Virus record (IMG/VR): IMGVR_UViG_3300015371_000046
Location: 1-54,944 of that record
Origin: a virus
DNA length: 54,944 nt
Direction: 5' to 3' (one strand)
The position numbers and the translations under genes are program-made. The notes beneath the pieces were generated by a model. It was not told the DNA's origin. It did no database searches and worked only from the letters and a program-made list of their open reading frames with translations. Positions 1 to 54,944 of this stretch are shown one piece after another; position 1 is the first letter of the stretch, and each line of letters opens with the position of its first letter.

Positions 1-123
1 CGGTGAACGGCAAAACAATCCGTCTACACAGATTAGTGATGGAGCAGCATCTAAACCGGAAGCTTCAATCATGGGAAGCGGTGCATCACATCAATGGAGA
101 TCGGAGCGACAATCGAATCGAGA
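1..123. repeat. Terminal overlap, left copy
   Basis: These bases are identical to 54822-54944. Joining the ends restores two open frames, the methyltransferase and the HNH gene, without a break. The overlap is therefore best read as the join of a circular or circularly permuted molecule of about 54,821 bp. A genuine terminal repeat would cut both genes on the linear virion DNA. Confidence 0.95.
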
Positions 124-439: not shown

Positions 440-555
440 TTTTGAAGAAAGAGTGTTGGATGTGCGGGGACAAGTTTGAGACACGGTTGGAGTTGAACAA
501 ATTTTGCTCGCCAAAGTGCAAGGAAACGTGGTTAAAGACGGCGGTACGCCATTGA
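400..555 (+). CDS. Small zinc-finger protein with a terminase-like N-terminus
   Basis: A 51-residue protein starting in an ATGA overlap with the methyltransferase stop. Residues 1-13 ([13 protein letters not shown]) closely match the first 13 residues of the large terminase at 1434 (MKFFSKYGWDWKE). The remainder is a four-cysteine finger, CWMCG then CSPKC, like the zinc fingers that accompany HNH endonucleases, including the one at 54563. No catalytic motif is present. It may be a remnant left by a mobile endonuclease at the terminase start, or a small DNA-binding protein. The gene is too short for a firm call. Confidence 0.6.
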   Translation: MKILSKYGYDWKEVLKKECWMCGDKFETRLELNKFCSPKCKETWLKTAVRH

Positions 556-1406
556 AACAGTGGATCAAGCCCCAACTCATCTCGATCTCTTCAGTGGGAT
601 TGGAGGATTTGCGCTTGCCGCGAAGTGGGCAGGATTTAGGACAATCGGGTTCTGCGAGATCGACGGGTACTGCCAGCAAGTCTTGCGAAAGAACTTTCTG
701 GCCTACTCCGAGAGTCAGCGACATAGTAGCGGGGAGGACGCTGGACGAGAAGGGAAATCGAGTGAGCAACGGAGTGAGATACGGAGCGAACCTTGCCGAC
801 AAAGTAAAATTTACTCCAACATCTTCGACCTCGACGGAACCCAATTCCGAGGCGTCGATCTCATCACAGGTGGATTTCCTTGCCAGCCTTTCAGCGTTGC
901 CGGGAACAGAAGAGGCGCGGCAGATGACCGTGCGATCTGGCCGCAAATGTTCAGGGTTATTGACGAAGCGCGACCCGCTTGGGTGGTTGGCGAGAACGTT
1001 CCTGGGATCGTGCCGATGGAACTCGACAACGTGCTTTCTGACCTGGAAAGAATCGGCTACGCCACGAGGGCGTTTGTTATTCCGGCTTGTGCCGTCGATG
1101 CCAAGCACCGGCGGGACAGACTTTGGATCGTTGCCAGAAACATTTTACACACCTCAGGAGGACGACGCGAGCAATGTAACACCGAATCCAAATCGGAGAC
1201 TGGGATTGTATGCACAAGTATTCCCGACTCCGAACACTCCGAGGCCGCACGACAACGACAATACAGCGGGGATGGATTATCCAAGTCAGAATCAGTTCGA
1301 TCTGGCGCGTGCTGTTGGGACGACGAAAGAGAGTGGAGCATTAAATCCGGCATGGGTCGAGTGGCTCATGGGATACCCAAGCGGGTGGACAGACTTAAAG
1401 GATTAG
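504..1406 (+). CDS. Overprinted ORF inside the cytosine methyltransferase gene
   Basis: A 300-codon open frame lying almost wholly within the methyltransferase gene, in its +1 frame. It looks like a real protein. It has repeated PTP-type motifs (FWPTPRVSD, FYTPQEDD, VFPTPNTP), a tryptophan-rich middle (RWNSTTCFLTWK) and a C-terminus reading LNPAWVEWLMGYPSGWT. From memory, that ending occurs at the C-terminus of, or overlapping, many phage cytosine methyltransferases. The start is uncertain: TTG 504 is the furthest upstream, and in-frame GTG codons follow. Its function is unknown; it could be a partner or specificity factor of the methyltransferase. Both frames staying open for about 850 bases is unlikely by chance. 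Confidence 0.6.
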   Translation: MLAKVQGNVVKDGGTPLKQWIKPQLISISSVGLEDLRLPRSGQDLGQSGSARSTGTASKSCERTFWPTPRVSDIVAGRTLDEKGNRVSNGVRYGANLADKVKFTPTSSTSTEPNSEASISSQVDFLASLSALPGTEEARQMTVRSGRKCSGLLTKRDPLGWLARTFLGSCRWNSTTCFLTWKESATPRGRLLFRLVPSMPSTGGTDFGSLPETFYTPQEDDASNVTPNPNRRLGLYAQVFPTPNTPRPHDNDNTAGMDYPSQNQFDLARAVGTTKESGALNPAWVEWLMGYPSGWTDLKD

Positions 1407-1480
1407 GGAATGCGATAGTACCGCAGGTAGCCTATGAAATTCTTCTCCAAATACGGCTGGGACTGGAAAGAGGGGACTGA
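560..1480 (+). CDS. dcm: C5-cytosine DNA methyltransferase
   Basis: A 306-residue enzyme with the ordered motifs of the family: DLFSGIGGF (residues 9-17, AdoMet binding), FPCQPFS (106-112, catalytic cysteine), ENV (145-147), KHRRDRLWIVA (182-192) and GLGNAIVPQVA (281-291). The start is GTG at 560, just after the TGA of the zinc-finger ORF, with no clear ribosome site. Two stretches, about residues 47-95 and 196-265, do not look like the family and have odd composition. They are where the overlapping frame carries its own motifs. The end overlaps the terminase start by 47 bases. It probably methylates phage DNA against host restriction. Confidence 0.9.
   Translation: MDQAPTHLDLFSGIGGFALAAKWAGFRTIGFCEIDGYCQQVLRKNFLAYSESQRHSSGEDAGREGKSSEQRSEIRSEPCRQSKIYSNIFDLDGTQFRGVDLITGGFPCQPFSVAGNRRGAADDRAIWPQMFRVIDEARPAWVVGENVPGIVPMELDNVLSDLERIGYATRAFVIPACAVDAKHRRDRLWIVARNILHTSGGRREQCNTESKSETGIVCTSIPDSEHSEAARQRQYSGDGLSKSESVRSGACCWDDEREWSIKSGMGRVAHGIPKRVDRLKGLGNAIVPQVAYEILLQIRLGLERGD
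1434..1473 (+). repeat. Terminase-start repeat, copy 2
   Basis: Partner of 400-439. It encodes the first 13 residues of the large terminase, with the same codon positions conserved. Confidence 0.75.
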
Positions 1481-4212: not shown

Positions 4213-4779
4213 GTGAGTTATCTGCTCGGTAGAAAAGAGTACGTACGCCAGTGGAGATTGAAAAATCTCGACAGGATTCGTGCTCACGAGCGGGAACTCT
4301 ATCTTAAAAACAAAGAACTAATTAGCATTCGGCGTAAAGCACGGCGTAAACTTTTCATTGAACACGAAAAAGGGTATCGCAAGGCTTATCGACTAAAACA
4401 TCTTGACAAAATAAGAGAATACGATCGGATTTGGAAAGTCAGGCAACGACAAAATACTCCCGAAAAAGCTCGTGAGAATGAACGTCGTAATTACGCTAAT
4501 AATCCCAAGCGGTTTCTGGAAAAGAACCGAAAACGCAAAACCTTGAAGCGAAATGGAATTATTGCTGATTGTTCGCAGAGATTGAAAGTCTTGGAACTAG
4601 AACGTTTTTGTCACTGGTGTTGTTGTCCACTTACAGATTCAAATCGAAGTATTGATCATGTAACGCCTCTTGCCCGAGGCGGTCATCATATTCCAGAAAA
4701 CTTGGTCGTTGCCTGTAAGAAATGTAATTCGTCACGCGGGGATAAACTAATTTCAGAGTGGACGTGGGAGGCAGCATGA
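4213..4779 (+). CDS. HNH endonuclease, free-standing
   Basis: A 188-residue protein from GTG 4213; the upstream ATG at 4211 is immediately followed by a stop. The first 100 residues are very basic and rich in Arg, Lys and Tyr (a DNA-binding arm). The C-terminal HNH module reads HWCCCPL, then SIDHVTPLARGGHH, ENL and CKKCNSSRG, with the zinc cysteines and the catalytic His in place. The stop overlaps the portal ATG (ATGA), and the portal ribosome site lies within this gene. It is probably a homing-type nuclease inserted between head genes. Confidence 0.88.
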   Translation: MSYLLGRKEYVRQWRLKNLDRIRAHERELYLKNKELISIRRKARRKLFIEHEKGYRKAYRLKHLDKIREYDRIWKVRQRQNTPEKARENERRNYANNPKRFLEKNRKRKTLKRNGIIADCSQRLKVLELERFCHWCCCPLTDSNRSIDHVTPLARGGHHIPENLVVACKKCNSSRGDKLISEWTWEAA

Positions 4780-11062: not shown

Positions 11063-11425
11063 ATGAAGCCAGGACGATACGATCTCCCCATAATCTGGCG
11101 GGGATCAACCTACCCCGAAATCACCTTTACCTGGCTGGATGCCAACGGTAAACCGACCAATCTGAATGGGTGGATACCACGGGCACGCAGTCTGAACATA
11201 GATTTTAGTCCTGTGGTCGTGGATGAAGCCAATGGGGTGACCAAGATCAGTTTTACCAAGGATCAGACCGGCAGAATGAAGCTGGGCATCGAATGGTGGG
11301 ACTGGGTTTTTGAGCATGTCGGTGGTGGCGCTAACGCGGTAAGAACAGACCCTCTGCTTCGGGGAACAGTAGAGATCAAAGACCCGGCAACAACAACAGG
11401 AGGGGAGCAACCTTTCAATGGCTGA
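11063..11425 (+). CDS. Small fibre-associated beta-domain protein
   Basis: A 120-residue protein. The start (YDLPIIWRGSTYPEITFTW, then DANGKPTNLNG) is the pattern of small beta-sandwich domains at the base of phage fibres and receptor-binding proteins. Those domains typically begin with a short polar leader, an RG.T step and a D.NG.P..L.G turn. It overlaps the start of the collagen-like fibre gene by eight bases. It is likely a connector or fibre-base protein. Confidence 0.6.
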   Translation: MKPGRYDLPIIWRGSTYPEITFTWLDANGKPTNLNGWIPRARSLNIDFSPVVVDEANGVTKISFTKDQTGRMKLGIEWWDWVFEHVGGGANAVRTDPLLRGTVEIKDPATTTGGEQPFNG

Positions 11426-14144
11426 TGACACATTTGGTGGCGTAGTAATAGATCGGCCCGAGCCGGATGTAATCGTGGTCATCAATCAGGGTGGGCACGG
11501 TGGCGGTCAAAGCGGGTTTAGCGGCTATTCAGGCAGCGGTGGCAGCAGTGAAAATCCAGGAGCCAGCGGGTATAGTGGTCGATCAGGATTTAGTGGTCCC
11601 CGCGGTCTGAGTGGGTTCAGCGGATACAGCAGTTCCAGTGGTTACAGCGGATATTCAGGGCTGGGACCAAGTGGGTTTTCAGGGTATTCAGGCGCATCGG
11701 GTATTTCAGGTCCAGGTGGAGGTAATTCGGGCTACTCAGGGTACTCAGGACTGGATGGAACGTTTTCTGCCAGCGGGTATTCCGGTTACAGTGGGTTCTC
11801 AAGCCGAAGCGGGTTTTCAGGGTTCTCTGGAAGTGGGGTTTCCGGTTACAGCGGATATTCGGGATATTCGGGTCAAACCGTTTCAGGGTTCTCAGGATTT
11901 AGCGGGTTTGGTCAGAGTGGGTTTAGCGGGTTTTCTTCCCAGAGTGGGTTTAGTGGATTTTCGGGTAAAAGTGGGTATTCCGGTGGACCGTCCGGGTTCA
12001 GCGGGTTTTCAGGCACAGGAAGTCCTCCGGGCGGTACCACTGGCAACTTCCAGTACAACGATGGTGCGGGCGGATATGCTGGGTCGCCATATCTCAACGC
12101 TGACGTTGCAGCAAACACGTTTGCCACCAATACCAGGTTCTTTTTCCAGGACGTAACTGATCCAACCAAAACAGTTAGGTTCGATACAGCTCCAATTCCT
12201 TCGGGCGGCAACGTCATCATCAGGGTTCAGGGCACTTCCACAACGGTTATCGCCAATCCTGCAACATCTAATAATTTCGTAACCGGGATTGGGGCAAGCG
12301 GGGACGTTACCAAGGCGCAACCGACCTTTTCAAACTTAGCTGGGTTGGCAACCTACGGGCAGATGGATCGGAGCACCACTGTTCTGGCCGAGACCAACAT
12401 CATCACCATTGCTGCCAATACCAAGGTCAAAAGTCAGGCCAGCGGCACTCTGACCACGATCGCTTTCAGCGGTGGCGATAATCAACAGCAGGGTCGCAGG
12501 CTGGATTTGGATGTCACCGGTGGTCCGTACACGCTTTCAATCCCGACCAGTCGTCGGATCGGTGAAACTGGTACCGTTAATTCCATTGCGATCTCAGCCG
12601 GTTATCACGAATTTTCATGGGAATATATCAATGGCGAGTACGTTTTGTCGGATTCCGTTCCGGGCACAACCACAGGGACAGGAACAAGCGGTTACTCAGG
12701 CTACAGCGGCAGAAGCGGGTATTCAGCTTACTCGGGCTTCAGCGGAGCTACCGGAGCAGGCTCAAGCGGTTTCTCGGGCTTTAGCGGGCCGGGTTCAAGC
12801 GGATTTTCAGGCTACAGCGCCCCTAATCTTCTCACTTTCTCTACTCACAACGACACCGATTACACCCTGATTCTAGCTGATGCCAATACTGGCATCATCA
12901 TGGCGTCCAGTGCGGCTCATAATCTGACCGTACCTACCAATGCTAGCGTTCCATTTGCATTGGGAACACAAATCCCTATCGAGCAAGGCGGAACTGGAGT
13001 TGTATCCGTAGTACCAGCAGCAGGAGTGACCTTGCAGGGTGCTTCAACCACCAGTGGTCAATATTCCTGCGTTGTTCTGATTAAGCAGGCCTCAAATACA
13101 TGGTTGGTAGCCAAGACTGGAACTTCTGGGTACTCAGGATACTCAGGCGGGGCTGGATCTGCCGGTTCAAGCGGATTTTCAGGGTACAGCGGTGGTGGAC
13201 CTTCAGGCTTTAGCGGATATTCCGGTCCGGGGTCCAGTGGATTTAGTGGATATTCGTCATTCAGCGGGTTCAGTGGAAAAAGTGGTTACAGTGGTTACAG
13301 CGCACCACAGCTTCTGACGTTCTCAACTCAGACTGACACCGATTACACTTTGGTGGCTGGCGATGCCAATACTGGTGTCAAGATGAGCAGCAGTTCGGCT
13401 CATAATCTCACGGTCCCACCAAATTCAAGTGTGGCGTTTGCTATTGGAACACAGATACCAGTAGAACAGGCAGGAACTGGTATTGTTTCAATCGTTGCGG
13501 GGGCAGGCGTGACTCTACAAGGAGCTGCTGCAACTAGCGGACAATATTCATTGGTTGTTTTAATAAAACAAGCTACGGATACATGGCTGGTAGGAAATGG
13601 AAACTCTGGTTATTCAGGATACAGTGGATCGTCAGGTATTAGCGGTTATTCAGGTTATAGTGGATTCTCAGCTTTCAGTGGTTTTTCAGGAACAGGAGGA
13701 TGGACTAAATTCACCGTAACTGGATCGGATGTAACAACAACTGGACAGACGTTAGTTGACATCACAGGTCTTGTAAGTGGAACTCTTTCTAACAGCACTC
13801 TATATTCCATTAGGGCAGAACTATACATTGGTACTTCTAATGTAGTCACTGGAACACAATACGGGATTCATCTTGGTGGAACTGGTGCGGCTGGAGTGGT
13901 TTCTTCTCTATTCACTAGCACTACGACTGCATTGGCCACTAATGGATGTACAGTGAATGCCGCAGATACTGCCACTAGCATTGTGTGTCTCACGGCATCC
14001 AATATAAATGGAGTAGCTGAGTTTAGGGGATTTGTTACTACAAGAAGCACTGGAACTGCCACAATTTCGATTCAACACCTTAAAGTAACCAGCGGAACCA
14101 GTACGGTGAAGATTGGTTCTTGGATGGAAATCAGACCAGCATAA
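11418..14144 (+). CDS. Collagen-like tail fibre with GFS/GYS repeats
   Basis: A 908-residue protein. After a short N-terminus come long runs of the tripeptide G-F-S or G-Y-S with occasional inserts (residues about 30-195, and further blocks near 420-470, 575-630 and 730-760). Gly at every third residue is collagen-like, but the aromatic X position is unusual. Two copies of a domain of about 95 residues sit between blocks; each holds DTDYTL, LADANTG or GDANTG, AHNLTVP and LQGA. The C-terminal 130 residues form a beta-rich head starting WTKFTVTG. It is probably a trimeric fibre. Confidence 0.8.
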   Translation: MADDTFGGVVIDRPEPDVIVVINQGGHGGGQSGFSGYSGSGGSSENPGASGYSGRSGFSGPRGLSGFSGYSSSSGYSGYSGLGPSGFSGYSGASGISGPGGGNSGYSGYSGLDGTFSASGYSGYSGFSSRSGFSGFSGSGVSGYSGYSGYSGQTVSGFSGFSGFGQSGFSGFSSQSGFSGFSGKSGYSGGPSGFSGFSGTGSPPGGTTGNFQYNDGAGGYAGSPYLNADVAANTFATNTRFFFQDVTDPTKTVRFDTAPIPSGGNVIIRVQGTSTTVIANPATSNNFVTGIGASGDVTKAQPTFSNLAGLATYGQMDRSTTVLAETNIITIAANTKVKSQASGTLTTIAFSGGDNQQQGRRLDLDVTGGPYTLSIPTSRRIGETGTVNSIAISAGYHEFSWEYINGEYVLSDSVPGTTTGTGTSGYSGYSGRSGYSAYSGFSGATGAGSSGFSGFSGPGSSGFSGYSAPNLLTFSTHNDTDYTLILADANTGIIMASSAAHNLTVPTNASVPFALGTQIPIEQGGTGVVSVVPAAGVTLQGASTTSGQYSCVVLIKQASNTWLVAKTGTSGYSGYSGGAGSAGSSGFSGYSGGGPSGFSGYSGPGSSGFSGYSSFSGFSGKSGYSGYSAPQLLTFSTQTDTDYTLVAGDANTGVKMSSSSAHNLTVPPNSSVAFAIGTQIPVEQAGTGIVSIVAGAGVTLQGAAATSGQYSLVVLIKQATDTWLVGNGNSGYSGYSGSSGISGYSGYSGFSAFSGFSGTGGWTKFTVTGSDVTTTGQTLVDITGLVSGTLSNSTLYSIRAELYIGTSNVVTGTQYGIHLGGTGAAGVVSSLFTSTTTALATNGCTVNAADTATSIVCLTASNINGVAEFRGFVTTRSTGTATISIQHLKVTSGTSTVKIGSWMEIRPA

Positions 14145-17555: not shown

Positions 17556-19175
17556 ATGTCATTCGTCCAATTTCAGTTCAGACGCGATCCGGCTGCCACA
17601 TGGACCAGCGAGAATCCCATACTTGCCGAAGGGGAATTGGGTCTTGAAACCGATACTGGTAAATATAAGGTAGGGGATGGATCAACCGATTGGGTCACCC
17701 TCACCTACAAAGGAATTGGATCAAGCGGTTACTCAGGTTATAGCGGACTTGGAGTCAGCGGTTTCAGCGGGTTTTCAAGCCCAGGGACTTCGGGGTTCAG
17801 TGGATTTTCAGCCGCAAGTCCGGGACCAAGCGGTTACTCTGGTTTCTCAGGCCAAAGCGGTTATTCTGGGTTTTCAGGCACGGGCGAAAGTGGGTACTCT
17901 GGGTTCTCGGGCGTGGGTGTCAGTGGCTACTCAGGTTACAGTTCCCAAAGCGGTGTCTCTGGATACAGCGGATATTCAAGTTCTTCAGGCTACTCTGGCT
18001 ACAGCGGTTCGGGAGTTAGCGGGTTCTCTGGCTTCTCGGGTGCCGGCACGAGCGGTTTCAGTGGATTCTCAGGAGCAGGTCTAAGCGGATTTTCAGGGTT
18101 TAGTTCCACCGCTCCTGGCACCAGCGGGTTCTCTGGGTTTAGCGGTGCTGGAACTTCGGGGTTTTCAGGGTTTAGTGGTGACGCTACTAGCGGGTTTTCA
18201 GGGTACTCGGCTTATTCAGGCTATAGTGGCACGGCCGGATCAATCGGGGTGGATGGAGCTTCTGGGTTCAGCGGTTTTTCAGGGCTTTCGGGATACTCGG
18301 GCTATAGCGGTTATTCAGGAGCAGGGCTTAGCGGTTATTCAGGCTATAGTGCGTTCTCTGGCTACAGCGCATACTCAGGCTATTCAGGTCCGCAACTCCT
18401 GACCTTCGCCACCGTTACCGATGCGGATCATCCGCTTGTTCTGGCAGACGCTAATACCGGCCTCAAGATGAGTTCGGCTGCGGCTCACAGCGTCAATATC
18501 CCGTTAAACGCTACTCAGGCATTCCCAACCGGAACACAGATCGTGGTTGAACAGGCTGGTGCTGGGATCGTATCAATCACGGTCACAGGTGGAGTGACGT
18601 TGCAGGGTGCTTCAGCCACCAACGGGCAGTACTCGACGGTCTGCTTAATCAAACAGGATACCGATACGTGGCTTGCAACGGTGTCAGGTGTATCTGGATT
18701 CTCAGGGTTCAGTGGTAAAAGCGGCTATTCCGGATATTCGGGTTACAGCGGGATTAGCGGTTACTCAGCGTTCTCGGGGTTTTCAGGGGCACCTCTGGCT
18801 ACATGCGGGGTTGCAACCTCTCCAACTGCTACACAGACAGATGCTATTACTCATGGATTAGGCAAGACCCCTGTTATTATCAGGCTGTACGGAATTGGAT
18901 CATTCACCAACAATGCGTCAGCAACGCCTACTACTCATTGCATTGGAATTTACAGTTCAAGCGGGAATCGGTGCGTTTATCAGCCTTACGATCCCAGTGC
19001 GATTACTGGAGCGGAACCTGGGGCAACTTCAACGGCTTACGCGGTAAGACTTGACACAGGTGCCAATGCTTTCATAACAGGAGTAGTCCAAAATGTCGGG
19101 GCAACAACGTTCGACATCGCCTGGACAGAAACCGGCACATCTGCTGCACAAGTTTATATGTGGGAGGCGCAATGA
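17556..19175 (+). CDS. Second collagen-like fibre with Mtd-type N-terminus
   Basis: A 539-residue protein. Residues 1-50 (FQFRRDPAATWTSENPIL, AEGELGLETDTGKYKVGDGS) match the short N-terminal domain seen in phage tropism determinants and fibres (Mtd_N type). Then come about 230 residues of GFS/GYS repeats and one copy of the same LADANTG domain found twice in the fibre at 11418. A shorter repeat block and a beta-rich C-terminus (about 120 residues) follow. The shared domain points to module exchange between the two fibre genes. Confidence 0.8.
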   Translation: MSFVQFQFRRDPAATWTSENPILAEGELGLETDTGKYKVGDGSTDWVTLTYKGIGSSGYSGYSGLGVSGFSGFSSPGTSGFSGFSAASPGPSGYSGFSGQSGYSGFSGTGESGYSGFSGVGVSGYSGYSSQSGVSGYSGYSSSSGYSGYSGSGVSGFSGFSGAGTSGFSGFSGAGLSGFSGFSSTAPGTSGFSGFSGAGTSGFSGFSGDATSGFSGYSAYSGYSGTAGSIGVDGASGFSGFSGLSGYSGYSGYSGAGLSGYSGYSAFSGYSAYSGYSGPQLLTFATVTDADHPLVLADANTGLKMSSAAAHSVNIPLNATQAFPTGTQIVVEQAGAGIVSITVTGGVTLQGASATNGQYSTVCLIKQDTDTWLATVSGVSGFSGFSGKSGYSGYSGYSGISGYSAFSGFSGAPLATCGVATSPTATQTDAITHGLGKTPVIIRLYGIGSFTNNASATPTTHCIGIYSSSGNRCVYQPYDPSAITGAEPGATSTAYAVRLDTGANAFITGVVQNVGATTFDIAWTETGTSAAQVYMWEAQ

Positions 19176-42214: not shown

Positions 42215-42444
42215 TTCTTTTTGGGTTCTATTTCCGGTGTGAGTGTGGTCTGACGTTGGACAATCATCCCGGTCAGAGCGCCGACTAACGTTGAGGCTAT
42301 TGAAATGATGGCGGTCAGGATGGCAGGGTCAGCGTAGTTCTTATAGAATAAGGTGAGGCACAGGGATAGCACGGTTACGAAAGCCAGAATGCAGATGGCA
42401 ACGACTGCGATTCTGCGGACTAGATCACGGCCAAAGTAATTCAT
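42211..42444 (-). CDS. Holin-like two-helix membrane protein
   Basis: A 77-residue protein. Two hydrophobic segments: RIAVVAICILAFVTVLSLCL and IISIASTLVGALTGMIV, then a charged C-terminus (EIEPKKK). Size, topology and coupling (ATGA) to the endolysin match a class II holin. It forms the inner-membrane lesion that times lysis. Confidence 0.78.
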   Translation of the reverse strand: MNYFGRDLVRRIAVVAICILAFVTVLSLCLTLFYKNYADPAILTAIISIASTLVGALTGMIVQRQTTLTPEIEPKKK

Positions 42445-44609
42445 CTCTTAACCTTACCTCGCTTGAGGGGTACGAGTCGAGCTTTCTTTAACTGGGTCAT
42501 CACATACTGGCGGCGTGAAGGTGAACCTTCGATGTATTTCTCAAGCCATCGGACATGATCGCCGGGGGTTTCATCGTCCCCGTTAGGAAAGGGAGGAGCC
42601 GCAGCCTTAACCTCTACGGCCCCCGAAGAAGTTTGAGCGGGGTTACCCATGGTTGCTTGGGGCGGTACCTGCTCACCAGAGGCTACACAGGGCATGACTT
42701 TATCAGCCTGCCTTACTTGAGTTTCCCCGCTCAAAATCATTTGTATCTCAGCCTTAACCTCATCATTTATACCTCCGTAAGACCAAAACTGTCGTGCAAA
42801 TGGGGGTGGCATTTCACCCTCCATGGTGTTTACCCAATGAAACTTGTCATGCTCAAAGAACCATGCGTATGCTCCCAGAGCATTGAACTCACTGAACTCA
42901 CGGTAAGTCTGTGCTTTTACGTAGTCGCCGAGGGTAACCTTATGCTTATCAAAACAAAATTGTCTTAATTTTGGGTAGAGCCATGTAGGAATCATCATGG
43001 GCAGACGCCGCATAAATTCGAAGGGGGGGTCTTCGCCCAGAAATTTTTGGGTAATAACTTTCCATGGCGTTTGGGTATGCTCGTAGGGGGTGTAGTACCA
43101 GATCAGTTTGCTGTTTGTTCCGAGGGGTTCTCCCATATCTCCTGCCGAGAAGAAATCCTGTGGCGTTACGGGGCGCGTGAAGAGGGTATCACTGTCGATG
43201 TGGAGGATGTAGTTTGCTTCGTAATTGGTGATGTTGTCGGCGTAGAGTTTATGGATTTGCTGGGATAAATAACCGTCTTCGCACTCATCATTCATCTGTT
43301 TCCACTCGTAGCCTTGGGTATCGGCAAAAGGAACGTCCTCGGGTGAAACGATCCAAATCTTCCTAAATCCAGAGGCATATTTGTTGATGGATTGGAGGCA
43401 AAATTTCAACCACTTGTAATCTTCGGGGTATGTACGGATGAAAATGTCGTAAACGGGTCCTGATTTCTTGAAGTATTTTCCAGCATCTATTGGGCCTTTG
43501 TGCTGTAGGGAATGGAGTTGGTCACAGGGCGGGAATGAAGCGGGGTGCAGAGGAGAAGGATTTTCGCCTTCGTTGGATGAACCGGGAACACCGGGAGGAT
43601 GAACAACAACCCCCTCTAAGCCGGTCGGCCCCGCCTGGGCCTGGCTCCTCTGCATTTCTAAAGATTGTGTTCCATCCGATGGCACTTCGGGCACAACCAC
43701 ATCACTTTTAGCCGCTCGTTGTAATTCGGATGGTGACCGTGAAGCGAAGTCTGAGTCCCGCAACGTTCGCAGTTCTCCGGTCTTTGTATTTTGCCAGACA
43801 GAAGCGCCGCCTCCACTGTTTTTCGTGCTAGTCTGCGCGGACCCCATTTTTGATTCTTGGGCCAATTTTTCGTGCGTTGTCTCCATGCCGCTCTGGTTTT
43901 GTTCTCGCATGTTCGGCATGGTCTCCAATACGGAGACCCCGGCCTGCGTCTGAATTGCTCGATAGGTTGTTCCCGCTGGCACTTGGTGCACGTTCTTTTC
44001 ATTTCTTAGGAGTTTAATGAGCGAGCCATCTTTTGAGGAATGAAAAATGACGGCTTCGGGTCTTATCTGTGTGGTTAATTCATGTCGATTAGTAAAAGTT
44101 TCGTGCCGCCAAGCGTGCTCAATGAGTTTAGTGAAGTGCGCCTGCGGAACAATCTGATGGGCACTCGCCATATCCCAGGCTACGCCCGCGGCTCTATTGG
44201 CTTCCCCTGCAAAGTTGTAGATTGGGTTGGGATAAACCCCGACTCCCGACATGTGGCGTGGAATATCGTTGACCTGCACGTCATCGCCCATGAAAGGTTT
44301 ACCGCACTTACCAAATTCATCGTCGATCGCGTCCAGCCAGTTAGGTTTTAGGGGGATAGCGTCAGGCTCCAGCCATAGGAAAGATTTAACGTTGGTGGCA
44401 TTATTGGACAGGTAAGAATTGACGGTACGGAACATATAATTGGCGCCCTCGGGCCAGCCGTCTATGTCGGCCTTGGCTTCGAGGTCACGAACATCGGTAA
44501 ACAGGGGGCGTGCGGCGTCCAGGATGGCCTGTACGGTGTTTTTTGGGCAGCGATGGTCATGGCACAGCAGGAGGGTATGGCGAGGCTTCAGGGAGCCTAA
44601 TTCAGCCAT
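42441..44609 (-). CDS. Two-domain glycosyltransferase with nested HNH gene in the linker
   Basis: A 722-codon frame. Residues 1-200 are a GT-A-like domain (FLWLEPDAIPLKPNWLDAI, AVIFHSSKDGSLIKLL). Residues about 203-318 coincide with an HNH gene in another frame and are polar low-complexity. Residues about 378-625 are a second transferase (VYDIFIRTYPEDYKWLKF, YILHIDSDTLFTRP, DUF6492-like). The coding pattern continues upstream of ATG 44609: in frame, from about 44691, it reads ARILVTLAYCLRDQDITLQL, like other N-termini of this type, but with no ATG, GTG or TTG. The true start has probably been lost to the HNH gene at 44666. Confidence 0.75.
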   Translation of the reverse strand: MAELGSLKPRHTLLLCHDHRCPKNTVQAILDAARPLFTDVRDLEAKADIDGWPEGANYMFRTVNSYLSNNATNVKSFLWLEPDAIPLKPNWLDAIDDEFGKCGKPFMGDDVQVNDIPRHMSGVGVYPNPIYNFAGEANRAAGVAWDMASAHQIVPQAHFTKLIEHAWRHETFTNRHELTTQIRPEAVIFHSSKDGSLIKLLRNEKNVHQVPAGTTYRAIQTQAGVSVLETMPNMREQNQSGMETTHEKLAQESKMGSAQTSTKNSGGGASVWQNTKTGELRTLRDSDFASRSPSELQRAAKSDVVVPEVPSDGTQSLEMQRSQAQAGPTGLEGVVVHPPGVPGSSNEGENPSPLHPASFPPCDQLHSLQHKGPIDAGKYFKKSGPVYDIFIRTYPEDYKWLKFCLQSINKYASGFRKIWIVSPEDVPFADTQGYEWKQMNDECEDGYLSQQIHKLYADNITNYEANYILHIDSDTLFTRPVTPQDFFSAGDMGEPLGTNSKLIWYYTPYEHTQTPWKVITQKFLGEDPPFEFMRRLPMMIPTWLYPKLRQFCFDKHKVTLGDYVKAQTYREFSEFNALGAYAWFFEHDKFHWVNTMEGEMPPPFARQFWSYGGINDEVKAEIQMILSGETQVRQADKVMPCVASGEQVPPQATMGNPAQTSSGAVEVKAAAPPFPNGDDETPGDHVRWLEKYIEGSPSRRQYVMTQLKKARLVPLKRGKVKR
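43658..44002 (-). CDS. HNH endonuclease nested in a glycosyltransferase gene
   Basis: A 114-residue protein. Zinc-binding starts (CTKCQREQPIEQF, CRTCENKTRAAWR) precede a core CERCGTQTSLHGHHPNYNER, VMWLCPKCHRMEH. The HNH-type His pair and cysteines are in place. It is read in the +1 frame relative to the transferase, whose frame has no stop across it. ATG 44002 lacks a strong ribosome site. A homing-type nuclease. Confidence 0.85.
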   Translation of the reverse strand: MKRTCTKCQREQPIEQFRRRPGSPYWRPCRTCENKTRAAWRQRTKNWPKNQKWGPRRLARKTVEAALLSGKIQRPENCERCGTQTSLHGHHPNYNERLKVMWLCPKCHRMEHNL

Positions 44610-44665
44610 CCAGTTGACGAGTTGGAGGGTGATGTCCTGATCTCTGAGGCAGTAGGCTAAAGTAA

Positions 44666-45163
44666 CTAAGATACGTGCCTCCAGTTCCGTTTATTAGCCG
44701 CACGGCTAACGATTGATTGATCTACTCTTAAATGTTTTGCCATTTCGGTTTGTGTCCATCTATACGGGTTTTGTCTTATCCATCGTACTTGTTCTTCGGT
44801 TAATTTTGCTCCAAATACGGCCTCGCCTTCTCTTCTTGCACCCCAACGTCCTTTCTTTATGCAATCCTGCATATTGTCTTTGAACGTTCCTAAAAACAGG
44901 TGCTCTGGATTTATGCAGGCTGGATTATCACACTTGTGAAGAACGCACATCCCTTCTGGAATATCCCCTCTGAATACCTGCCATGATAAACGATGAGCAT
45001 CGTGACTTTTTCCACCGCTTTTTCCATTCGAAATCGTTAATCTTCCGTACCCAGCTGGGGTTCTCGTTCCAATCCAGATCCAGCAACCGGTGTTTTGATC
45101 TTCTCGGTTACGAGCCAGCAATCTTTCTTTAAGATTTGCTCCTTTGGGTGCGTAGGATTTCAT
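44666..45163 (-). CDS. HNH endonuclease with C-terminal helix-turn-helix
   Basis: A 165-residue protein. Residues 1-110 form an HNH_3-type nuclease (CWIWIGTRTPAGYGRL, AHRLSWQVFRGDIPEG, VLHKCDNPACINPEHLFLG). Residues 115-165 form a DNA-binding helix-turn-helix (FGAKLTEEQVRWIRQNPY, MAKHLRVDQSIVSRA, then NWRHV), the usual homing-endonuclease specificity tail. Its 3' end overlaps the first codons of the glycosyltransferase. The short string CGTAT occurs just before its start and near its end. Confidence 0.9.
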   Translation of the reverse strand: MKSYAPKGANLKERLLARNREDQNTGCWIWIGTRTPAGYGRLTISNGKSGGKSHDAHRLSWQVFRGDIPEGMCVLHKCDNPACINPEHLFLGTFKDNMQDCIKKGRWGARREGEAVFGAKLTEEQVRWIRQNPYRWTQTEMAKHLRVDQSIVSRAANKRNWRHVS

Positions 45164-53387: not shown

Positions 53388-53588
53388 GTGGAATGGGACA
53401 AGGAGAGGTATCCGAATCGGAAGGCGTGGGAGATAGCGGTGGTGAGGGCGGAGAGGGCGAAGCGGTATGCAGGGAAGTTTGGGCATTTGATAAGGGAGGG
53501 GGATTTAATTTTCCAAGATATAGGGTGGCAATATGAGAACGAGGGGTTAAAGGCTGTGAGACAAAATGCTGACTACACTGCAAGGTGA
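53265..53588 (+). CDS. Small basic protein with Val-Thr repeats
   Basis: A 107-residue protein: MSNSERQKRYRERMKALREV, then ANVTKTGESVTDVVG and SVTPVTVEWDK, then RKAWEIAVVRAERAKRYAGK. Proteins starting 'MSN.ERQ..YRER' followed by variable Val-Thr stretches are frequent in phages, function unknown; probably DNA-binding. Its N-terminal codons include the GTAACG copies. It overlaps the methyltransferase start by 23 bases. Confidence 0.68.
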   Translation: MSNSERQKRYRERMKALREVANVTKTGESVTDVVGSVTPVTVEWDKERYPNRKAWEIAVVRAERAKRYAGKFGHLIREGDLIFQDIGWQYENEGLKAVRQNADYTAR

Positions 53589-54944
53589 CGCGCTTATGAG
53601 GCTGCGGGAGATGCCTGGGGAGAGTGTGCAATGTGTGTGTACGAGTCCGCCGTATTGGGGGTTGAGGGATTATGCGGCTGAGGGGCAGTTGGGGTTGGAG
53701 AAGACGCCGGAGGAATACGTTGCCAGGATGGTGGAGCTGTTCCGCGAGGTGCGGCGTGTGCTGCGCAAGGACGGGACGTTGTGGCTGAATCTGGGGGACA
53801 GCTACGCAACACAGCCAGCAGGCAACTTCGGAAAGGACATGCCGAAACCTGCCGATGGCGGGGCGTATCGTGAGAACAAGCCAAAGATGGATTGGGCTAG
53901 AACTGGCCTCAAGCCCAAAGACCTGTGTGGGATACCGTGGCGGGTAGCGTTTGCGCTACAGGCGGACGGCTGGTGGTTGAGGAGCGACATTATCTGGGCG
54001 AAACCGAACCCGATGCCGGAGTCGGTGACTGACAGGCCTACGAAATCGCATGAATATCTTTTCTTACTTACGAAGTCAGCGAATTACTTTTATGATGCGG
54101 AGGCGATAAAGGAACCCGCAATAAATGCTGGTCGAGTCGTCGGCTACGATGGCAGCCAGAAAAATTGCGAGACTATAGGTGATCCACGATTTGCAACGCG
54201 AATTACGTCAGATCGAACGGTCGGCGATGGTCGCAATAAGCGAACCGTCTGGACTGTCGCAACGTCGCCATATAGCGAGGCGCATTTTGCGACCTTTCCA
54301 CCTGACCTGATTAAGCCGTGCATCATGGCGGGGACAAGCGCGAAGGGGTGCTGCGCTAAATGCGGTGCGCCGTGGGAGCGGGTGGTGGAGAGAGAATTTC
54401 AGTCTGACGGCAAAAGCGCGAAGCGTGGCACATCACGCGACGTGAATGATCATCGAGACACATTCGGGGACGATCATGGAACATGGAAAACCGAAACCCT
54501 AGGATGGCAACCGACCTGCCTTCACTACTTGACTTGTGATGAGCAACGGTTATCATCCAAAGATGCCACACAAAGACCCGGAAGCGGAAAGAGCATGGCG
54601 ACGGAAATGGAACAAGAAGCGGTGGGCAGACCCGAAACGCCGAGCGGGGATTCAAGCGACTCGAAACAAGCATCCGATCAAATGTCGATTTTGTGGCAAG
54701 ATAAAAAAAACTCGAAAGGGATCGGAATTTTGCAGTCGGACTTGCTCGGCGAAATGGATGTGGGCCACGGGACACGAAAATTGCTTCACGAACGATGCGA
54801 CGAACAGATACAAGTTCGCGACGGTGAACGGCAAAACAATCCGTCTACACAGATTAGTGATGGAGCAGCATCTAAACCGGAAGCTTCAATCATGGGAAGC
54901 GGTGCATCACATCAATGGAGATCGGAGCGACAATCGAATCGAGA
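53566..54944 (+). CDS. DNA methyltransferase, N-terminal part (continues to 403)
   Basis: The 5' part of a 552-residue protein. Residues 1-50 include CTSPPYWGLRDY (catalytic SPPY motif at about 27-30). SPPY before the AdoMet motif is the beta class, commonly N4-cytosine. Then come typical elements (RRVLRKDGTLWLNLGDSY, WALQ-type helix as VAFALQADGWWLRSDIIW, KSHEYLFLLTKS). A zinc-ribbon like CCAKCGAPW...WQPTC precedes the insertion. From about 54520 the frame leaves the family pattern because of the nested HNH gene. It resumes at VPCTVLDPF near base 245 past the join. Confidence 0.85.
   Translation, partial: MLTTLQGDALMRLREMPGESVQCVCTSPPYWGLRDYAAEGQLGLEKTPEEYVARMVELFREVRRVLRKDGTLWLNLGDSYATQPAGNFGKDMPKPADGGAYRENKPKMDWARTGLKPKDLCGIPWRVAFALQADGWWLRSDIIWAKPNPMPESVTDRPTKSHEYLFLLTKSANYFYDAEAIKEPAINAGRVVGYDGSQKNCETIGDPRFATRITSDRTVGDGRNKRTVWTVATSPYSEAHFATFPPDLIKPCIMAGTSAKGCCAKCGAPWERVVEREFQSDGKSAKRGTSRDVNDHRDTFGDDHGTWKTETLGWQPTCLHYLTCDEQRLSSKDATQRPGSGKSMATEMEQEAVGRPETPSGDSSDSKQASDQMSILWQDKKNSKGIGILQSDLLGEMDVGHGTRKLLHERCDEQIQVRDGERQNNPSTQISDGAASKPEASIMGSGASHQWRSERQSNR
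54563..54944 (+). CDS. HNH endonuclease, N-terminal part (continues to 188)
   Basis: The first 127 codons of a 148-residue protein in the +1 frame of the methyltransferase. Basic Arg/Lys/Trp arm (MPHKDPEAERAWRRKWNKK), zinc finger CRFCGKIKKTRKGSEFCS with RTCSAKW, then the start of the HNH core. The non-HNH flanks between conserved methyltransferase segments total only about 100 bases, too little for a usual group I intron core. Confidence 0.85.
   Translation, partial: MPHKDPEAERAWRRKWNKKRWADPKRRAGIQATRNKHPIKCRFCGKIKKTRKGSEFCSRTCSAKWMWATGHENCFTNDATNRYKFATVNGKTIRLHRLVMEQHLNRKLQSWEAVHHINGDRSDNRIE
54822..54944. repeat. Terminal overlap, right copy
   Basis: Identical to bases 1-123. See the left copy for the interpretation. 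Confidence 0.95.

What the first reader, a model, noticed from the sequence alone, without database searches (positions are those of the whole stretch)
43658..44002. Second nested HNH gene in the same relative frame
Seen: inside the glycosyltransferase gene at 42441-44609 a 114-residue HNH gene is read in the +1 frame, exactly as in the methyltransferase. The host frame stays open for 115 codons. The host-frame peptide over it is polar, Ser/Gln/Thr-rich and lies between two transferase domains. Two independent cases with the same phase suggest a repeated strategy, namely HNH genes that enter and keep host enzymes translatable. The insertion may even have fused two transferase genes.
Basis: partly seen in the sequence, partly recalled or inferred. 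Interest (0 to 1): 0.85.

Follow-up and report, generated by a model that had tools for sequence, protein, structure and literature searches.

The report
Hidden HNH gene inside glycosyltransferase linker
In this phage a small DNA-cutting (HNH) gene is written in a shifted reading frame inside the flexible linker of a two-domain sugar-transferase gene without breaking the transferase's own frame; a related phage has the same arrangement at the same spot, and near relatives have the same transferase without the insert.

Summary
The 114-aa ORF 43658-44002(-) is an intact HNH endonuclease (phrog_2340) in the +1 frame of a 722-codon ORF, and the host frame is stop-free across it. Chance is a poor explanation: P(open) is about 4e-4 with genome codon usage and 2e-3 with the gene's own codons; of 70 other HNH genes of the family, 2 have that frame stop-free. 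A related phage (L007) shows a homologous HNH at the same codon, phase and linker. Two relatives (L116, 86.5% DNA identity to L007 over GT1; L003) have the same fused protein with a short linker and no HNH, so the insertion did not fuse the domains. Host domains are under purifying selection (dN/dS about 0.12) between an HNH+ and an HNH- allele. AlphaFold makes the HNH frame confident (pLDDT 94) and the host-frame peptide disordered (about 30). The methyltransferase case is also real: it spans the circular origin, and its HNH is a homologue of the ShiLan HNH. Hidden out-of-frame HNH insertions were published in 2025 (ShiLan domain), so this is a new variant: another host enzyme, HNH family, phase and site type. 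Expression and homing of the HNH are inferred.

The parts
42441..44609 (-). Host ORF: fused two-domain transferase, 722 aa; frame open to 44690 and homology to relatives reaches 44672 (ATC where relatives have the ATG start)
43995..44609 (-). Host GT1 domain (transferase-like), ends in KDGSLIKLLRNE
   Evidence: conserved with L003, L007, L116 and others; pLDDT high
43658..44002 (-). Nested HNH endonuclease gene, 114 aa, +1 frame of host; the host frame over it encodes a disordered linker
43452..43657 (-). Remaining Pro/Ser/Gly-rich interdomain linker
42729..43451 (-). Host GT2 domain, Stealth/GNPT/CpsY-like phosphotransferase fold
44666..45163 (-). Second HNH gene (HNH_3 plus helix-turn-helix) abutting the host 5' end; not nested
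53560..54944 (+). DNA methylase ORF, first part; continues across the circular origin to 403
54563..54944 (+). HNH gene nested in the methylase in +1 frame, first part; continues across the origin to 188; ShiLan-HNH homologue

Best explanation
A homing-type HNH endonuclease gene has invaded the disordered linker between the two transferase domains of a phage enzyme, in a frame (+1) that leaves the host frame open. Shown: the host is one continuous reading frame with and without the insert; the HNH is intact; the host-frame stops that its codons could create are avoided; the downstream host domains stay under purifying selection in an HNH-carrying lineage; the overlapped host peptide is predicted to be an unstructured linker. 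Inferred: the host ribosome reads straight through, making a transferase with a longer linker; the HNH is made separately and weakly from its internal ATG; it spreads by cutting HNH-less alleles near the GT1 end and being copied in during co-infection. Because the linker tolerates almost any stop-free sequence, it is a safe harbour, and only frame-preserving insertions persist.
For: HNH intact. Host frame open against P about 1e-3. A homologous HNH at the same codon, phase and linker in L007, whose host frame is also open: P 1.5e-4 or less with genome codon usage, 1.1-1.3e-2 with own codons; T-ending codons at 0/25 risky vs 12/63 other junctions. Empty sites: L116 (linker about 33 aa; 86.5% DNA identity to L007 over GT1) and L003 (about 39 aa). 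dN/dS 0.126 (GT1), 0.114 (GT2) and 0.147 (MTase) between HNH+ L007 and HNH- L116, with similar branch-specific amino-acid changes, 12 vs 9. Linker pLDDT <50 over 208-381, with GT1 and GT2 well predicted. No intron in Rfam; no intein domain in Pfam. Published precedent in a methylase (PMC11855218), and a homologue of that very HNH is nested in the methylase of this genome.
Against: No expression or cleavage data exist. No good Shine-Dalgarno precedes either nested ATG. In this phage the host lost the ATG that relatives use: either an ATC start behind GGAGG, or an ATG 21 codons downstream that drops the N-terminal segment, so host output is uncertain here. Only two HNH+ lineages and one near-identical strain are known. 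The single difference between window and L002 in this gene is Arg->Pro in the HNH and silent in the host (sequence), which fits host constraint better than HNH constraint. Homing is inferred from patchy distribution alone.
Confidence: 0.77

Rival explanations
1. The host frame is open by chance: the HNH gene sits between two separately translated transferase genes and the stop-free +1 frame means nothing.
For: HNH genes with few T-ending codons can leave this frame open; 2 of 70 relatives have it stop-free.
Against: The fused protein exists in L003 and L116 without the HNH. Open frame at P about 1e-3 here and 1e-2 or less in L007, joined in frame on both sides. A +1 methylase case with 0/34 risky T-ending codons in the same genome.
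Confidence: 0.06
2. The HNH is a dead or unexpressed passenger; the DNA now serves only as a host linker and is kept open for the host.
For: No clear Shine-Dalgarno at either nested ATG; the only window-L002 difference changes the HNH but not the host.
Against: The HNH keeps all conserved zinc/catalytic residues and folds at pLDDT 94. L007 keeps the core motifs despite deep divergence. A pure linker would lose them quickly.
Confidence: 0.13
3. The insert is spliced out as an intron or intein, so that the mature host lacks it.
For: Homing HNH genes commonly ride on group I introns; the insert site is compact.
Against: No Rfam match at E<=1, no intein/Hint domain in Pfam. In L007 the HNH coding sequence itself fills nearly the whole linker, leaving no room for a ribozyme. 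An intron need not be stop-free.
Confidence: 0.03

Closest known systems
ShiLan domain / hidden out-of-frame HNH in phage DNA methylases (Arsenault, Gosselin & Gogarten 2025, Genes 16:178, PMC11855218)
   Same: HNH gene in an alternate frame of a phage enzyme, host frame stop-free, homologues with and without insert, no intein or intron, host-frame peptide unstructured, no visible RBS.
   Different: Host is a transferase fusion, not a methylase. HNH belongs to another family (no significant BLASTP match). HNH phase is +1, not +2. Site is a variable interdomain linker, not a handful of conserved residues. No match to actinobacteriophages was found for this host.
phrog_2340-type phage HNH endonucleases (free-standing, e.g. 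phiVC8 p30 between SSB and DNA polymerase)
   Same: Same domain, CxxC pairs and HGHHxNY / WLCPKCH core.
   Different: Relatives inspected are stand-alone genes next to others, e.g. in phiVC8 and ABPH49, not nested in a continuing host ORF.
Free-standing homing endonucleases that split phage genes (e.g. mobE in nrdA of phage Aeh1; from memory, not tested)
   Same: Endonuclease gene inside a conserved host gene; host function kept.
   Different: There the host is cut into two proteins; here the host frame runs through.

Membership tests
Hidden out-of-frame HNH insertion (ShiLan type) | Host frame stop-free across the insert | tested here: met
Hidden out-of-frame HNH insertion (ShiLan type) | Intact HNH encoded in another frame of the insert | tested here: met
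Hidden out-of-frame HNH insertion (ShiLan type) | Homologous hosts with and without the insert | tested here: met
   L116 and L003 without, window/L002 and L007 with
Hidden out-of-frame HNH insertion (ShiLan type) | No intein or intron splicing elements | tested here: met
   splicing itself not assayed
Hidden out-of-frame HNH insertion (ShiLan type) | HNH homologous to the ShiLan HNH | tested here: not met
   GT-HNH vs ShiLan: no significant match; the methylase HNH of the same genome does match, E 2e-17
Hidden out-of-frame HNH insertion (ShiLan type) | Insertion among highly conserved host residues | tested here: not met
   Left edge abuts the conserved KDGSLIxLLR end, but the site lies in a variable linker
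Hidden out-of-frame HNH insertion (ShiLan type) | Active homing | not testable with these tools
   Only patchy distribution is seen
phrog_2340-type HNH endonuclease | Profile match and conserved zinc/catalytic residues | tested here: met
Group I intron-encoded HNH | Group I ribozyme around the ORF | tested here: not met
   No Rfam match at E<=1
Stealth/GNPT-like phosphotransferase (host GT2) | Stealth CR2 match and fold | tested here: inconclusive
   Pfam E 3.5e-6 but 27.6 bits, below the 39.4 cut-off; fold Z 18 to GNPT/CpsY

The most novel reading that the evidence does not exclude
Flexible linkers of phage multi-domain enzymes are a recurrent harbour for unrelated homing HNH genes that persist by dual coding. 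In this clade the same linker codon was invaded twice independently, and in L007 the HNH DNA has become essentially the entire linker, so one DNA stretch serves both as nuclease gene and as host linker.
Probability: 0.4. Interest if true: 0.78.

Novelty: new variant of a known kind. Interest (0 to 1): 0.62.

Why it matters
It extends a phenomenon published, as far as I found, only for actinobacteriophage methylases to another enzyme class, another HNH family and the other reading phase. Empty and filled alleles 86.5% identical in GT1 DNA make it testable. It shows a third way, besides introns and inteins, for a homing gene to sit inside a coding gene without breaking it. It warns that stop-free, low-complexity linkers in phage proteins may hide genes that annotation misses, and it gives compact cases of same-strand dual coding in which one frame is disordered and the other folded.

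Tried and rejected
A search of 50,697 phage records for the host found nothing by DNA or protein, and genome contigs found no HNH or GT1 relative; only IMG/VR gave relatives. An HNH tree of 72 rows was unresolved: few columns, long branches, and holding the two nested HNHs together is not rejected (p-AU 0.98). BLAST ranks several HNHs from other loci above the other nested one, so one or two insertion events cannot be settled. Foldseek alone gave nothing significant for the HNH. An A7 rescan for more HNHs returned almost the same loci, and a search for close relatives of the L007 HNH found only itself. Long nested ORFs elsewhere in the window (e.g. in collagen-like genes) gave no family match where tested and are taken as composition effects. 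The idea that the HNH fused two genes was rejected from L003 and L116.

Full report
OBSERVATION. The minus-strand ORF 42441-44609 (722 aa) contains the ORF 43658-44002 (114 aa) in the +1 frame. The small ORF is a genuine HNH endonuclease: phrog_2340 E 3e-18. Its zinc cysteines and the HGHH..NY / WLCPKCH core are largely invariant or nearly so in 29 relatives. AlphaFold gives pLDDT 94, and the best solved neighbour is an HNH nickase, 4h9d, Z 5.3 over 62 residues.

CHANCE. With the HNH protein held fixed and synonymous codons redrawn, the host frame is stop-free in 0.035-0.04% (genome usage) or 0.18-0.24% (own codons shuffled) of trials; the third frame never is. Codons ending in T before AA/AG/GA would make host-frame stops. 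They occur at 0 of 22 such junctions, against 17 of 58 other junctions that could carry them (p=0.002). For the L007 HNH the figures are 0/25 vs 12/63 (p=0.013), and for the window methylase HNH 0/34 vs 21/77 (p=0.0002). Among 70 other distinct HNH genes of the family, the same frame carries 9.3 stops on average over the last 120 codons or less and is stop-free in two (L060, L113); neither frame extends far beyond the HNH.

RELATIVES. Searching with the host domains, not with the nesting, found L002 (near identical), L003 and L007, and L116. L003 and L116 encode GT1-linker-GT2-methyltransferase as one ORF with a linker of about 39 and 33 residues and no HNH. L007 encodes the same fusion with a 133-residue linker. 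That linker contains a 125-aa HNH gene in the same +1 phase, with its ATG at the homologous codon (LLR-[N/H]-[E/D]) and its TAA abutting the start of GT2. L007 and L116 are 86.5% identical in the GT1 DNA and come from the same sample, so they are a filled/empty allele pair. Between them dN/dS is 0.126 (GT1), 0.114 (GT2) and 0.147 (methyltransferase). Branch-specific amino-acid changes are similar, 12 in the HNH+ and 9 in the HNH- lineage. The host therefore remains constrained downstream of the HNH, and the HNH did not create the fusion.

STRUCTURE. In the 721-residue host model, GT1 (1-207) and GT2 (386-627) are well predicted, while 208-381, which contains most of the HNH overlap, is below pLDDT 50. 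GT2 has the GlcNAc-1-phosphotransferase / CpsY fold, Z about 18, with a sub-threshold Stealth_CR2 match. One strand segment thus encodes a folded nuclease in one frame and a disordered linker in the other.

COMPANION CASE. The window carries a 123-bp direct terminal repeat, i.e. it is circular as assembled. Across the origin, a DNA methylase ORF (53560 -> 403) holds a nested HNH (54563 -> 188), also +1. Methylases of Methanoculleus virus L4768 and Bordetella phage PHB04 lack the insert. That HNH matches the hidden HNH of mycobacteriophage ShiLan gp65 (32% over 147 aa, E 2e-17). The GT-linker HNH does not match it. One genome thus carries two unrelated hidden HNH genes.

KNOWN PRECEDENT. Arsenault et al. 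2025 (PMC11855218) described the ShiLan domain: an out-of-frame HNH insertion in a methylase with an open host frame, patchy distribution, no intein or intron, and no visible RBS. I re-read ShiLan gp65: its HNH is in the +2 frame. The present element works like it, but differs in host enzyme, HNH family, phase and site type.

MECHANISM. Shown: anatomy, avoidance of host-frame stops, host constraint, empty and filled alleles, disordered overlap (predicted), absence of intron or intein signatures. Inferred: read-through translation of the host, separate weak initiation of the HNH at its ATG (no strong Shine-Dalgarno), and spread by homing. The shared +1 phase needs no special cause, since the alternative frame is never open for these proteins. 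Whether window and L007 represent one or two insertions is open: BLAST ranks HNHs of other loci higher, but the tree does not reject a pair, and the start codon sits at the same homologous position.

CAVEATS. In the window the host's ancestral ATG is an ATC behind GGAGG, overlapping the stop of a further HNH gene (44666-45163), so host expression in this strain is uncertain. The only difference between window and L002 in the gene is Arg->Pro in the HNH and silent in the host (sequence). No expression or activity data exist.

Noticed in passing
window 504-1406 (+) and 560-1480 (+): A C5-cytosine methylase ORF (PF00145, phrog_363 E 3e-68) overlaps almost fully another frame that matches phrog_1008 (E 2e-29) over the same DNA. 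Similar DNA in Paenibacillus phages is annotated as two methyltransferase CDSs. Looks like a conserved overlapping gene pair.
   Followed up: partly
window 44660-44700: The second HNH gene (44666-45163) ends exactly where relatives have the host ATG. The window has ATC behind a GGAGG, so this insertion may have cost the transferase its start codon.
   Followed up: partly
window 1-123 and 54822-54944: 123-bp direct terminal repeat; the record is circular as assembled.
   Followed up: yes
window 11418-14144 and 17556-19175: Collagen-repeat proteins, one with a major-tropism-determinant N-terminal domain; their repeats give long open +1 frames by composition.
   Followed up: no
L076 1754-2608: Another HNH locus (HNH 1870-2379) whose +1 frame is open for 284 codons at only 41% GC; may be a further hidden case in the ShiLan phase, not examined.
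   Followed up: no
window 4213-4779: A further free-standing HNH gene; with 54563->188, 43658-44002 and 44666-45163 there are at least four HNH genes in this 55-kb genome.
   Followed up: no
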